A stretch of 64,000 bases of DNA, taken from NCBI GenBank assembly GCA_017857395.1, contig JAFMDF010000010.1:1-64000 (forward strand), given 5' to 3'. Below are positions 1 through 8,620 of the stretch, in pieces (position 1 is the stretch's first letter; each line of letters opens with the position of its first letter). A model generated the notes under the pieces. The model saw nothing but the letters and a program-made list of their open reading frames with translations. It did not search any database and had not been told where the DNA came from. The DNA comes from Bacteroidota bacterium. Lineage in GTDB: Bacteria > Bacteroidota > Bacteroidia > Chitinophagales > Saprospiraceae. A program made the position numbers and the translations under genes.

Positions 1-115
1 GAAAGAAATTGAAGAATATTAACTGCCGCTAACTTCTTGCGCAAACCACTAGCCACAGGCTGCTTGAGTTGACATATCAGGTCTTTGGTTTGCACGAAGT
101 CTGCTTCTGGTATTT
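1..115 (+). ncRNA. 3' portion of a second, diverged retron-like ncRNA unit (truncated by window start)
   Basis: Segment 47-101 is a direct repeat of 373-427 (the 3' part of the ncRNA next to the RT): shared acaggctgcttgagttgac and aggtctttggtttgcacgaagtc. It is followed by a T-tract, as in the downstream copy. Confidence 0.55.
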
Positions 116-195
116 TTTTTTATTACTCAATCGGGTAGGGGGGCGATACAACTCGCAACCCGTAACTCGTAACCCGCAACTCGAATTTTTCTTTT

Positions 196-439
196 GGGGA
201 CAGCATTGCACTTGCATTAGTATATCAAAGTTTAGGCTTTTATATACTTCGATTGATGTTATCGTCAATCAGATTCATAGCTTTTTCATGCTTCACCCAG
301 TCAGTCGAGACTTTGCAGCCTAAAGTTACTAGTGTACCATTTCCTAGATTACATCGGAGATGTGAAATAGTACACTAGTAACAGGCTGCTTGAGTTGACT
401 GGCTAGGTCTTTGGTTTGCACGAAGTCGCTGTCCTTTTT
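196..439 (+). ncRNA. Putative retron msr-msd ncRNA
   Basis: a1 ggacagc (198-204) complements a2 gctgtcc (428-434), followed by a T-tract. msr-like hairpins at 221-246 and 251-270. Long msd-like hairpin 325-343/364-382 with terminal acatc-gga-gatgt and basal gcagcct/aggctgc (315-321/383-389). Located directly upstream of the RT. Confidence 0.7.
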
Positions 440-455
440 CTACTGTAGTCTTCTC

Positions 456-490
456 TAAATCATGGTGATTTTTAAAATCACCATGATTTA
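456..490. repeat. Perfect 17-bp inverted repeat between ncRNA and RT gene
   Basis: taaatcatggtgatttt (456-472) / aaaatcaccatgattta (474-490). Confidence 0.8.
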
Positions 491-512
491 ATTACCTTAA
501 AAATGTACAACC

Positions 513-1910
513 ATGTCAGACGATAGAAGAACCTTACTGCGCCAGCAAATGCGCGAAACTTCCAAAGAAAACGTCATTTTAAATGAAATGAAGCGTTTAG
601 GATTTTGGCCGAATGAAGAAAATGCGCCTACCTTACCCGAACAAATCATTACCGAAGAAACAGCCTTAAATAAAGAATTGCGGCAGTTGTTAAATGAACA
701 GAGATTACTGCAAGATAGAGATAGGCTACTCCGCAAAATTCGTAAAGAACGGATGAAAGCGTCTAGAGAAAAACAAAAGGCGAATCGAGAAAAAAGAGAA
801 GCAGCAAGAATTGTTCGAAAAGCAGCCTGGCAGGAAAAACAACAAAAGGACATTGTTTATTTAGGAGAAGAAGTTTCGAGTGGATTAAATGATGCGACCA
901 ATAATACGGAATTATTAGAAAAATTAGGTTTACCTATTTTTGAATCGGCAGCAGCAGTCGCTACTTTTTTGAACATTAATCTTTCGCAATTACGGTTTCT
1001 AGCTTATAACCGAAAAGTCAGTAAAGTATCGCATTATAAGCGATTTTATATGGCGAAGAAAAGTGGCGGAAAACGCTTGATTTCTGCGCCAATGCCGCTA
1101 CTGAAAAGTGTGCAATATCAGATTTTGAATGAATTATTGTATCGTTTAGAAATTCAAGATACGGCTTACGGTTTTGTACCGAATCGGTCTATTGTGGATA
1201 ATGCCAAACAGCATATTGGGCAATCGGTGGTCATCAATATGGATTTAAAAAATTTCTTTCCGACGGTTACTTATAAACGAGTCAAAGGTTTATTTAAGGC
1301 ATTAGGATATGGTCAAAAATATGCTACTATATTAGCCTTGCTTTGCACCGAACCAGAAACAGATGAGGTAAAAATGGATGGCGAACGTTATTTTGTGGCA
1401 ACGGGCGAAAGACATCTACCACAGGGCGCACCAACCAGCCCCGTTATTACCAATTTGATTTGTCGGACTTTGGATAAAAGAATGTTAGGGGCTGCTAATA
1501 AGTTAGGTTTTACTTTTTCTCGGTATGCCGATGATTGTACTTTTTCATGTGCTGAAGCGGATAAACCGAATGTCAATAAAATGCTTTGGATAGCGCATCG
1601 AATTGTGAAAGAAGAAGGCTTTATCATGCACCCTGATAAATTGAGTATTATGCACAAAGGGCGGCATCAGGAAGTAACGGGGATTGTGGTCAATGAAAAA
1701 TTAAATGTGAATCGTAAAGATTTAAAGAAATTTCGAGCTTTATTATTTCAAATTGAACGAGATGGATTTGAAGGGAAATCTTGGAATAATAGCCCTAATT
1801 TACCAGAATGTATTCAAGGCTATACAAATTTTGTGATGATGGTGAACCCTGTCAAAGGGAAGGTTTTGAAGGGACAGGTTCGGCGGATATTGGCAAAGCA
1901 TGCTTGTTAA
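513..1910 (+). CDS. Retron-type reverse transcriptase with N-terminal coiled-coil extension
   Basis: NAKQH (NAxxH), LPQGAPTSP, FSRYADD and VTGIVVN motifs; N-terminal extension ending IVYLGEEVSSGL, resembling myxobacterial Mx162-type retron RTs. Confidence 0.88.
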   Translation: MSDDRRTLLRQQMRETSKENVILNEMKRLGFWPNEENAPTLPEQIITEETALNKELRQLLNEQRLLQDRDRLLRKIRKERMKASREKQKANREKREAARIVRKAAWQEKQQKDIVYLGEEVSSGLNDATNNTELLEKLGLPIFESAAAVATFLNINLSQLRFLAYNRKVSKVSHYKRFYMAKKSGGKRLISAPMPLLKSVQYQILNELLYRLEIQDTAYGFVPNRSIVDNAKQHIGQSVVINMDLKNFFPTVTYKRVKGLFKALGYGQKYATILALLCTEPETDEVKMDGERYFVATGERHLPQGAPTSPVITNLICRTLDKRMLGAANKLGFTFSRYADDCTFSCAEADKPNVNKMLWIAHRIVKEEGFIMHPDKLSIMHKGRHQEVTGIVVNEKLNVNRKDLKKFRALLFQIERDGFEGKSWNNSPNLPECIQGYTNFVMMVNPVKGKVLKGQVRRILAKHAC

Positions 1911-1918
1911 AATGATTC

Positions 1919-1984
1919 ATCCGTTGGGCTTCATTCATCCGTTGGGTATTATTTTTCCCAACGGATGAATGAAGCCCAACGGAT
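1919..1984. repeat. Perfect 28-bp-arm inverted repeat (ATCCGTTGGG family)
   Basis: atccgttgggcttcattcatccgttggg (1919-1946) and its exact reverse complement (1957-1984), 10-nt T-rich loop. Confidence 0.85.
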
Positions 1985-3998: not shown

Positions 3999-4174
3999 GC
4001 CTAGGTTCTTGCGAACTTCTTTAATTATTTCTTATGACTGACTATGACTTATGTTCGCATCGGCAAACAGTTTAGTCATTTTTTTGATGATTGGTTTTAG
4101 ATACTGTTGGCTCATTATTTGGAATATCTATCAATAAAATATTTAGGTAAGTATTTTACTTTTAGTCACAAAAA

Positions 4175-4230
4175 AATCCATGTTAAGCACTATAGGTCAA
4201 TTCCTTAACCCGTAGTGCTTAAGATGGATT
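4175..4230. terminator. Hairpin downstream of small ORF 4258-4377
   Basis: aatccatgttaagcacta / tagtgcttaagatggatt (1 mismatch). Confidence 0.5.
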
Positions 4231-4257
4231 ATCTTTTAATAATATACATTGTTATTA

Positions 4258-4377
4258 TTAGTCATTTCCTCTTCCTTTCTCTTTCTTTTTTGCTGCTTTT
4301 GCCGCTCTTTTTTCTTTCAACGTTTTTCCAGCTGCTGTTTTAGTACCTTTTTTTTGAGCACTTTTTCCTTTTGCCAT
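4258..4377 (-). CDS. 39-aa Lys/Ala-rich basic microprotein
   Basis: Reading the minus strand: MAKGKSAQKKGTKTAAGKTLKEKRAAKAAKKKEKGRGND*; not in the supplied ORF track; followed by a hairpin. Confidence 0.55.
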   Translation of the reverse strand: MAKGKSAQKKGTKTAAGKTLKEKRAAKAAKKKEKGRGND

Positions 4378-4607
4378 GTCGCTTTTTTTAAAAAATTTAA
4401 CTAAATATATTTTTGGGGAATAGCCCCCTTTCTATACTATGTAAGGTTGATTTGTTGATTATTAAGTTAAATCAATGCTATGGATTAATAATCAATCAAA
4501 TCTATTAATACTTATTTCTGCCACCATAGATGGAGAGCAAGATAGGATATTATACTTATAAACCTAAAAATTTATTGTAAATCCTCTTTCAAATCCTCGA
4601 ATTTTAC

Positions 4608-7046
4608 TCAATAATACCGATTATTACAAAATACTACTTCTTCTTTATACAAATCCGTCCTGCTCTTCCTAATAATCAACTCATCCACCAAAAACAACTG
4701 CTCTTCCATAGCCTTATTCAAGATAGAAACCTCCAAAACGCCATCAGCAGGCAAGGTAAAAGGCAAATCTACCAAAGACCAACCATCATTAGCCATGACA
4801 GATAAAAAGTAACGAATTTGTGGGCGGTGTTGCCACATAACAGCACCTGTTGTAGGGTCTAGTAACTTAACATTTACGAAAGTATTGGCAACTGGAAATT
4901 TTTGCAAGTTATGCGCCCAAAAAGAAAGACGAATGTTATCTCCTTTTTTAGTATTGGGAACTTCACCTTTAAAGATAGTTTGGGGAGTACTGATATTTAA
5001 ATTTAACCCACCATTACCTCGATAGGCAGCCGATTGGTCTTGGTCATCAAAAGATTGATACACAAAATTTTCGATACTATCGGTAGATAAAAAGCCATTG
5101 ATGTTAAATAAAGTAGAATCTGCTTGCAAACGTTGTTGAATAGCTATTTTTCGATTATCAATCCGTTCTTGGAAACCCGATAGCGGCAATTCATAATAAC
5201 GCATGGCATCTACGGCTTTTAAAAATTTCATCCCTTCTCCTAAATAAGGATATTTTTCAAGATGACTGGTATCTACCATCAATAATAAAGGTTTGTCGTT
5301 TTTAAAATCGGATAAAATAGTAGGAATATCGTAAGGTTCAGTTGTTGTTTGAAATAATTTATAGGCTCTGGAAACAGAACTACGGTTACCCATAGAAGCT
5401 ATTAAAGGCAAACCTGTTTCCATAGATAAGGCGGAACTTTTTTGTTGAATCCGTCCGTGGACTTTGGCATTAAAATTATCCGTTCCTACATGGAAATAAG
5501 GAATGGGTAAAATGGCTTGGTAGTTGTCAAAATTGAAACCTGTTTTGTCTTTAAAGGTTTTACCTTCATAAAATTCTGGGACGGTATCCATGCGGTATCT
5601 TCGAGCATGATTAAATTGCCACGATTCATACACTAATAAAGCTAAAGGCAAAAGGAGCCATACTTTTTTCCTGCTAAATTTTCGATAGAGGTAAGTAAAA
5701 ATGATAATATTGATGACGTAATAAAATATCCAATTAAATCGACCAACTGAACGGAACTGTTTTAATGGGCCTGAATAATCCAGTAAATTTTCAAAGCCAG
5801 GCAAAACAAACGGTATCCCAAAAGAAAAAACAACCAATACAAATGCCATGGCAAATAAGCGCCTTAAAAAATCCGCATCATCATAGACTAATTTTTCTAA
5901 ACCTCGCATCATAATCAATTCGCTCTGCGCTACTTTCCCCGCTTTTTTGGAAGTTAAAACCGTCATCTTTTGGAAAAAAGAATTTTTGAACAAATGACTT
6001 ATCCAATGGAATAACATGGTCAAAAATACCCCAAATCCAACAATCCCTACATAAGCTAAACCCTCTGAACTTACTTTTCGAATTTCAATAATATTTTCAT
6101 TAATCCATTTATAATAAGGCATTCTAAGTGATAAAAATAAACCTTCCCAATGCGAAATGAAAATAAGAAAACCATAAGGTTTATCTGGTCGATTAGGCAC
6201 GTCATATTGGGCAAACCAAATTAGGAATAGCGCATAAGGCAATAAGACTTGAAAAGAAAAATGAAGGGCATATCGAAAAAAATCTGATTTTGGAAATATC
6301 CATTTGCCCATTTCATTCCCCGACGGACGGGCTTTTTTCAAAAAGGAAAAGAAATAAAATAGGGCGATCATAAAAGCCGTAATGGCAAAAAAGTAGAATT
6401 GTATTAAAGAAGTTAATAAGACCGTTAAAAATAAACCAATGCTCGACCACCAATTAGGTCGTTCATCAAAACGCATTAAAAAATAAATCGTCGCAGGAAT
6501 CGCATATAAATGAGCTAAGCCATAATGCCCAAATAAACGTTCTGCTTGGGGCGACATCATCGTCAATCCAATCGAAACAATGATGTTAAACCATGGAGGT
6601 ATCGCTAATCGAGCGAATATTAAGTATAAAAAGATAGCACAAATTAGATAGGAAAACAGCATCGAATAATGCAAAATAGGAATCGAATAATCTGTTACAT
6701 CTAAACCAACTGATTTTAAAAATTTTAAGCCATTAGAAATCAAAGGAATTGTCGAAGCAATCGTCACATGTTCTCCATACGGATAGCCCATTCCTTCAAA
6801 TACGGTATAAGTAGCGTCGTACTTGGCGTGATAGGTGACGATATTATAGGCATTAAATGCATCTCCATACCCTTGAATCACATGGTTTGGCGAAGCGGTC
6901 AATATTTGCCCGAATCGAATGTATAAAACGATGCAAGTAAATAGGAGGAGTAAGAGAAATCCGAGTTTGTTTTTTTGTCGCAAATTGTTGGGTTTGCGGG
7001 TTGCGAGTTGCGAGTTGCGGGTTTTACGTACTGTATGAACCCGCAA
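4608..7046 (-). CDS. Large multi-TM membrane protein (glycosyltransferase/YfhO-like), hypothetical
   Basis: Many hydrophobic segments; start uncertain because the first residues (TRNSQLATRKP) are encoded by an intergenic heptad repeat; a TTG start in NLRQKNKLGF is an alternative. Confidence 0.65.
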   Translation of the reverse strand: MRVHTVRKTRNSQLATRKPNNLRQKNKLGFLLLLLFTCIVLYIRFGQILTASPNHVIQGYGDAFNAYNIVTYHAKYDATYTVFEGMGYPYGEHVTIASTIPLISNGLKFLKSVGLDVTDYSIPILHYSMLFSYLICAIFLYLIFARLAIPPWFNIIVSIGLTMMSPQAERLFGHYGLAHLYAIPATIYFLMRFDERPNWWSSIGLFLTVLLTSLIQFYFFAITAFMIALFYFFSFLKKARPSGNEMGKWIFPKSDFFRYALHFSFQVLLPYALFLIWFAQYDVPNRPDKPYGFLIFISHWEGLFLSLRMPYYKWINENIIEIRKVSSEGLAYVGIVGFGVFLTMLFHWISHLFKNSFFQKMTVLTSKKAGKVAQSELIMMRGLEKLVYDDADFLRRLFAMAFVLVVFSFGIPFVLPGFENLLDYSGPLKQFRSVGRFNWIFYYVINIIIFTYLYRKFSRKKVWLLLPLALLVYESWQFNHARRYRMDTVPEFYEGKTFKDKTGFNFDNYQAILPIPYFHVGTDNFNAKVHGRIQQKSSALSMETGLPLIASMGNRSSVSRAYKLFQTTTEPYDIPTILSDFKNDKPLLLMVDTSHLEKYPYLGEGMKFLKAVDAMRYYELPLSGFQERIDNRKIAIQQRLQADSTLFNINGFLSTDSIENFVYQSFDDQDQSAAYRGNGGLNLNISTPQTIFKGEVPNTKKGDNIRLSFWAHNLQKFPVANTFVNVKLLDPTTGAVMWQHRPQIRYFLSVMANDGWSLVDLPFTLPADGVLEVSILNKAMEEQLFLVDELIIRKSRTDLYKEEVVFCNNRYY

Positions 7047-8041: not shown

Positions 8042-8620
8042 ATGTCTGGACAACAAACAGCGATGAAAATGGATAATCTCGAACAATTCATACGAGACAA
8101 CCGAGAAGAGTTTGACACGGCCGTTCCAAGTTTGAAAATTTGGGCGGAATTGGACAAACAATTACCTCAACCACAAGAAAAAACTGAAGCTAAGCGGATT
8201 TCTATCCGACGCTTCTTGAGCATAGCAGCAGCGGTGACTTTATTAATCGGCTTTGGAGTAGGTATTGGTTTTTCTTTATCTCCTAGCCCTGACCAAAGTG
8301 CCGTCACGTTGAGTGATTTGTCTCCAGAATATGCAGAAGTAGAACAATATTATGCAACGCAAGTCAATAGCCAATTAGCAAGATTGGCTAGTTATAAGGC
8401 AACTACACCAGAGATGCAGGCAGATTTAGCAGAGTTAGATCAATGGATGCAGGATTTGCAAAAGGAACTATCAATCGTTCCTAAAAGTAAGGAAGAAGCG
8501 GTGGTGAATGACATCATCGACCTTTATAAAACTAAAGTGGCCATTTTAGGAAAATTATTAGAAAGTATTCAATCAAGTAATCAAAAAAACAGTAATCAGC
8601 ATGAAACCGTGGATATATAA
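8042..8620 (+). CDS. Probable anti-sigma factor / sigma-associated membrane protein
   Basis: Directly downstream of the ECF sigma gene; single TM segment ISIRRFLSIAAAVTLLIGFGVGIGF. Confidence 0.65.
   Translation: MSGQQTAMKMDNLEQFIRDNREEFDTAVPSLKIWAELDKQLPQPQEKTEAKRISIRRFLSIAAAVTLLIGFGVGIGFSLSPSPDQSAVTLSDLSPEYAEVEQYYATQVNSQLARLASYKATTPEMQADLAELDQWMQDLQKELSIVPKSKEEAVVNDIIDLYKTKVAILGKLLESIQSSNQKNSNQHETVDI

What the first reader, a model, noticed from the sequence alone, without database searches (positions are those of the whole stretch)
1..1910. Reverse transcriptase preceded by tandem, partly variable structured ncRNA units (retron-like array)
The RT at 513-1910 has retron hallmarks (NAKQH, YADD, VTG). 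Immediately upstream is a foldable ncRNA (196-436), and 326 bp further up is a second copy of its 3' part (47-101 vs 373-427). Two blocks are identical (acaggctgcttgagttgac; aggtctttggtttgcacgaagtc). What differs is the central pentamer (atatc vs tggct), the putative a2 segment (tgcttctgg vs gctgtcc) and the msd 3' strand. In the intact unit those variable positions fall in predicted paired regions. Known retrons generally carry one msr-msd per RT, so an RT with repeated ncRNA units would be unusual. The window edge cuts the upstream unit, so more may exist.
Basis: partly seen in the sequence, partly recalled or inferred. Interest (0 to 1): 0.92.

Follow-up and report, generated by a model that had tools for sequence, protein, structure and literature searches.

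The report
Type XIII retron with tandem msr-msd array
A bacterial reverse-transcriptase immune system (a type XIII retron) carries not one but four tandem copies of its template RNA, each predicted to make a different small DNA hairpin, and relatives carry one to four, which suggests that one immune effector may be wired to several interchangeable DNA sensors.

Summary
The repeat is real, and the array is larger than the window shows. The RT at 513-1910 is a type XIII retron RT (PADLOC RT_XIII, E 2e-178). The window begins at a contig start, inside an insertion sequence (IS). The rest of the locus lies on contig C456: WGR/HEAT-ARM_XIII and SWIM_XIII genes, two more complete ncRNA units, and the 5' half of the unit whose 3' half is window 53-112. 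Gene order is ARM-SWIM-[ncRNA x4]-RT, with three units intact.

Among 51 type XIII loci with a recognisable unit, 24 carry two to four. Units share msr and 3' parts but differ in msd stem and closing arms. Within loci, msd pairs changed on both sides yet still paired number 610, against 178 broken. A central stem block of about 22 or 33 bp has only 1% G-U pairs, consistent with function as duplex DNA. Sister species share msd types in shuffled order. I infer several msDNAs served by one RT and effector pair, most likely as alternative sensors; dosage is the main rival. Structure is well supported; function is untested.

The parts
1..48 (.). Right end of a multicopy IS inserted in ncRNA unit 3; target duplication CTAG is 49-52. 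The contig starts here.
   Evidence: Matches about 38 other contig ends; inverted ends TGGTTTACGCATGAAG (C456) and TGGTTTGCGCAAGAAG (reverse complement of the window end); CTAG on both sides
53..112 (+). 3' half of ncRNA unit 3 (end of msd, GAGTTGA block, a2 TGCTTCTGGTA); its 5' half is at C456 about 8285-8440
   Evidence: Joined halves fold as one normal unit and a1 CCAGAAGCA pairs with a2 TGCTTCTGG; partial model hit at 1-99
196..436 (+). Complete ncRNA unit 4 (a1 196-204, a2 428-434)
   Evidence: Fold; covariance model hit 249-425, E 3e-32 (a training sequence)
206..215 (+). Candidate priming-G motif TTGC/CTTGC at the inner end of a1
   Evidence: TTGC in 87 of 92 units against 22 expected by shuffling; position analogous to TAGC of known retrons
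251..270 (+). Conserved msr hairpin
   Evidence: Compensatory changes in the alignment
315..389 (+). msd hairpin with unit-specific stem
513..1910 (+). Retron reverse transcriptase, type XIII, 465 aa
   Evidence: PADLOC RT_XIII 2e-178, RVT_1
456..490 (.). Perfect 17-bp inverted repeat between unit 4 and RT; possible terminator or leader hairpin

Best explanation
This is a type XIII retron whose template gene has been duplicated into a tandem array. Upstream of the window (contig C456) lie the two effector or accessory genes, a WGR/HEAT-ARM protein and a winged-helix/SWIM zinc-finger protein; four msr-msd units follow, then the RT. Shown by computation: the units, their folds and own closing helices, conserved msr and 3' parts, compensated variable msd stems, and recurrence in relatives. 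Inferred: the array is transcribed from a promoter ahead of unit 1; each unit folds on its own because its a1/a2 arms pair best with each other; the single RT recognises the shared parts and makes several msDNA species with different duplex stems, held with the same ARM/SWIM proteins. Following the general retron model (msDNA as latch or sensor that phage SSBs, methyltransferases or nucleases disturb), each stem most likely offers a different target, so that disturbing any one activates the shared effector. In this genome an IS has destroyed unit 3 and separates the effectors and units 1-2 from unit 4 and the RT, so the local system may be impaired.
For: Family assignment of RT, ARM and SWIM. 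Four units and the IS-split unit. 24 of 51 loci have 2-4 units. Own closing helix 18.8 bp against 8.9 bp with a sister unit's flank; 61 of 65 units reach 8 bp. Stem changes: 610 double and paired, 20 single and paired, 178 broken. G-U 25 of 2209 in the central msd block against 15-47% at the stem base. Sister species keep msd types in new order or combination. Promoter motif before first units, 15 of 51 against 3.6 expected, not before later ones, 2 of 41 against 2.0. msDNA as sensor in other retrons: PMC13158370, PMC12548924.
Against: No transcript or msDNA data. Stem hypervariability with pairing kept is also what neutral drift under a pairing constraint would give. No recognition-site signature beyond TpA and GTAC enrichment was found. 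About half of type XIII loci manage with one unit. C456 and C621 are joined by inference, not by one read.
Confidence: 0.55

Rival explanations
1. Dosage: the copies only raise ncRNA or msDNA level or stoichiometry. The stem sequence is neutral as long as it pairs, and the a1/a2 differences arise by drift or to prevent misfolding.
For: Pairing is kept while sequence drifts; flanks that contact the RT are conserved; single-unit loci exist.
Against: msd types persist across species and are reassorted; stems are compositionally biased, TA 194 against 122 and GA-poor, so not free of constraint.
Confidence: 0.28
2. Decaying or retrotransposed by-products: extra units are dead copies, as proposed for the msDNA-like repeats of Nannocystis exedens.
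For: Precedent in PMC6868368. A few units lack a clear closing helix or TTGC. Unit 3 here is broken by an IS.
Against: Compensated stems, own closing arms in 61 of 65 array units, and deep persistence of arrays in one clade of nine. In this genome there are no scattered copies.
Confidence: 0.07
3. Recombination reservoir: units are silent cassettes that swap stems into one expressed unit (a variation device).
For: Near-identical flanks around divergent cores; order and combination of msd types change between sister species.
Against: Every unit keeps its own arms and msr; a reservoir would need only the msd. The promoter-motif signal lies before unit 1, not before the RT-proximal unit.
Confidence: 0.07

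Closest known systems
Type XIII retrons (classification of Mestre et al. 2020, not readable here; PADLOC RT_XIII, WGR_XIII/HEAT-ARM_XIII, SWIM_XIII)
   Same: All three protein families match at E 2e-178 or better, in the same gene order as most relatives.
   Different: Four ncRNA units instead of one. Whether the original description notes repeated units could not be checked.
Retron-Nex1 (Ne160) msDNA-like repeats of Nannocystis exedens (Lampson and Rice 1997, via PMC6868368)
   Same: Several msr-msd-like repeats in one genome.
   Different: Described as lying without an RT within a kilobase and read as retrotransposed; here units are tandem, intact, and sit between effector and RT genes.
Single-msDNA retrons with known triggers: Eco8, Ec86, Asa1, Squ1
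   Same: msDNA acts as the switch between a phage protein and the effector (PMC13158370, PMC12548924); I assume the same logic.
   Different: One msDNA per system, other effectors; type XIII trigger and effector mechanism not described in the papers I could search.

Membership tests
Retron | RT with YADD, NAXXH (region X) and VTG (region Y) | tested here: met
   YADD, NAKQH, VTG in the ORF 513-1910; definitions in PMC6868368
Retron | Template RNA next to the RT with a1/a2 closing arms, msr hairpin(s) and long msd hairpin | tested here: met
   Fold of each unit; own arms at least 8 bp in 61 of 65 array units
Retron | Conserved priming G near the end of a1 (usually TAGC) | tested here: inconclusive
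   TTGC in that place in 87 of 92 units; TAGC in the distant subgroup; priming itself untested
Retron | msDNA with 2'-5' linked RNA is produced | not testable with these tools
   Needs msDNA extraction
Type XIII retron | RT of the type XIII clade | tested here: met
   RT_XIII 2e-178, next family 2e-95
Type XIII retron | ARM/HEAT-repeat (WGR) and SWIM partner genes | tested here: met
   WGR_XIII 8.7e-231, SWIM_XIII 2.8e-221 on C456; adjacency to the RT inferred from the split unit, and direct in relatives
Retron, usual layout | One msr-msd per RT (usual, not strictly defining) | tested here: not met
   4 units here; 2-4 in 24 of 51 loci
Anti-phage defence system | Protection against phage | not testable with these tools
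   Inferred from family membership only

The most novel reading that the evidence does not exclude
Type XIII retrons carry a heritable, recombinable repertoire of DNA sensors: one RT and one effector pair read out several msDNAs whose duplex stems are each matched to a different phage protein, and lineages reshuffle, gain and lose stems under phage pressure.
Probability: 0.35. Interest if true: 0.95.

Novelty: new variant of a known kind. Interest (0 to 1): 0.8.

Why it matters
Retrons are described as one RT, one template RNA, one msDNA, one effector. Arrays of 2-4 templates with conserved RT-facing parts and diversified stems are natural variants of the msDNA alone. They make an open question directly testable: whether msDNA stem sequence sets what a retron detects (PMC13158370 names this as unclear). 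They are also a natural design for making several DNAs from one RT, which is useful for retron-based editing.

Tried and rejected
Rfam: no retron or other credible family in 1-2400. Phage origin of stems (spacer-like capture): three stems of 19-21 nt had no exact match in 2.9 million viral contigs; only three were tried. Methylase or restriction-site signature: palindromes of 4, 6 and 8 nt not enriched overall, only GTAC. Separate promoters per unit: no motif enrichment before later units. RNAalifold on the MAFFT alignment found only two hairpins because the msd strands are not aligned in register, so stem statistics were taken from per-unit folds. Key retron papers (Mestre 2020; the experimental retron census) are not held. 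Searches for multi-ncRNA retrons in the literature found nothing beyond Nannocystis.

Full report
What was checked. The RT ORF is 513-1910. It matches Pfam RVT_1 and, specifically, PADLOC RT_XIII at E 2e-178, with the next family at 2e-95. It has NAKQH, YADD and VTG, the motifs given for retron RTs in PMC6868368.

The window is only the right half of the locus. Position 1 is the start of contig C621 of a 10.15-Mb, 631-contig genome. Window 1-48 matches about 38 other contig ends, so it is the end of a multicopy IS that broke the assembly. The signature occurs four times in the genome: twice in the window and twice on contig C456, 8,487 bp. C456 carries a 974-aa protein (WGR_XIII, 8.7e-231; HEAT-ARM_XIII) and a 544-aa SWIM zinc-finger protein (SWIM_XIII, 2.8e-221). 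It then has two complete ncRNA units and the beginning of a third, and ends in what reads as the other end of the same IS. The third unit stops at ...GTACCCTAG followed by TGGTTTACGCATGAAG, and the window has CTTGCGCAAACCA followed by CTAGCCACAGG: a 4-bp duplication CTAG between inverted ends. The left half carries a1 TTACCAGAAGCA and msd strand GTGGCTAGG; the right half carries CCTAGCCAC and a2 TGCTTCTGGTA. Joining the flanks gives one normal unit. The RNA model finds these units and nothing else in the genome, and there is one such RT.

Anatomy of a unit. From 5' to 3': a unit-specific arm a1; a motif TTGC (87 of 92 units against 22 expected) in the place where known retrons have the priming guanosine, usually in TAGC; an optional extra hairpin (in units 2 and 4, replaced in unit 1, absent in unit 3); the conserved hairpin with loop TGTTTCG or TGTTATCG; CATGCTTCAC; the msd hairpin; GAGTTGA; a stretch that closes the stem base; GCACGAAG; the unit-specific arm a2. 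All four units close with their own arms in the minimum-energy fold.

Relatives. RT homologues were sought in about 1,190 genomes by three searches, and 63 regions were read, plus loci from the species-level collection. A covariance model from 26 units was searched over 674 kb of these loci. Nearly all strong matches lie in ncRNA positions of type XIII loci, on the RT strand. Of 51 loci with at least one unit, 27 have one and 24 have two to four: G000, L050, L051, L054, L067 and L124 have four; L058, L072, L113, L116 and L131 three; the rest two. Counts are lower bounds; for L116, another unit sits at the end of a separate contig with SWIM and ARM. On the RT tree, single and multiple states need at least nine changes, five forced by well-supported branches: arrays have formed or collapsed repeatedly, yet one well-supported clade of nine is all multiple. 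A more distant type XIII subgroup places its array ahead of the ARM gene: G147 has a second locus with four units there, and G363 has at least two.

What varies and what does not. Between units of one locus the msr part is 82% identical, the 3' block 86%, the msd 68%. At paired msd positions that differ, 610 cells changed on both sides and still pair, 20 changed on one side and still pair, and 178 are broken; partners slid by 1-2 positions pair 37% of the time (cells are counted over ordered pairs, so they are not independent events). G-U pairs are 25 of 2,209 in the central msd block, against 15-47% at the stem base and about 20% near the tip, and 36 of 527 in the outer msr hairpin. Folding allowed G-U everywhere, so this is not a method effect. 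Avoiding G-U in the msd is what is expected if the stem matters as DNA, where G-T is a mismatch. It contrasts with the description that msd stems generally contain mismatched or wobble pairs (PMC6868368). Core length falls mostly in two classes, 172-178 and 196-200 nt; the difference of about 22 nt is 11 bp, one helical turn. Stems are rich in TpA (194 against 122 expected) and GTAC, but not in palindromes generally.

Closing helices. Folding each unit with its own downstream flank gives a mean closing helix of 18.8 bp; with the flank of a sister unit from the same array it is 8.9 bp. 61 of 65 array units reach 8 bp with their own flank, and 42 of 65 pair strictly best with their own. Simple duplex energies agree (-23.8 against -15.3 kcal/mol). 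This is what a multi-unit transcript would need so that units do not cross-pair. The Bacteroidota promoter motif TAnnTTTG (my knowledge) is enriched before first units but not before later ones, consistent with one precursor. Both points are inference, not transcript data.

Descent. In genus g130 (L050, L051) three of four msd types have a partner in the other species at 79-92% identity, in changed order. In g367 both types are shared. In g333 three species each hold two of three types in different pairings. Distinct msd types therefore outlive speciation and are reassorted.

Mechanism. Retron msDNA is described as the latch or sensor that phage SSB, methyltransferase or nuclease activity disturbs to free an effector (PMC13158370; PMC12548924). 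I infer that one RT, recognising the shared parts, makes several msDNAs and that they serve one ARM/SWIM pair as alternative sensors. The main rival, dosage with stems free to drift, explains much of the same pattern and is not excluded. In this genome unit 3 is inactivated by the IS, which also splits the operon.

Verdict. A genuine type XIII retron with a tandem msr-msd array: a new variant of a known kind as far as the held literature shows. The nearest precedent is the RT-less repeat family of Nannocystis. Whether the original type XIII description mentions repeats could not be checked.

Noticed in passing
L143 (G147:C343:15500-25500), 4148-5450: A second type XIII-like locus in the same genome as L051, with four tandem ncRNA units ahead of ARM and SWIM genes; the contig ends just after SWIM, so the RT was not seen.
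   Followed up: partly
L079 (G363:C7:30000-43500), 1839-2000 and 2235-2397: At least two ncRNA-like units ahead of the ARM gene in the distant type XIII subgroup.
   Followed up: partly
msd stems of 92 units: Stems are rich in TpA, GTA, CTA and GTAC and poor in GA/TC and CTC. Cause unknown.
   Followed up: partly
All loci, unit cores: msd stems come mostly in two lengths differing by about 22 nt (11 bp, one helical turn), with few intermediates.
   Followed up: no
L052, L111, L115, L119, L125, L135, L138: Contigs start within about 350 bp upstream of (or inside) the RT, suggesting that short-read assemblies often break at these arrays and that array sizes are underestimated.
   Followed up: no
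L071, L134: The single unit lies between the ARM and SWIM genes instead of between SWIM and RT.
   Followed up: no
window 1919-1984 and 2057-2205: A perfect 28-bp inverted repeat just after the RT, and a second inverted repeat (28 nt, 89%) around a 93-nt gap.
   Followed up: no
window 1-48 and about 38 contig ends of the genome: A very abundant IS (ends TGGTTTRCGCAWGAAGTT, CTAG duplication here) fragments this assembly; its transposase was not identified.
   Followed up: partly
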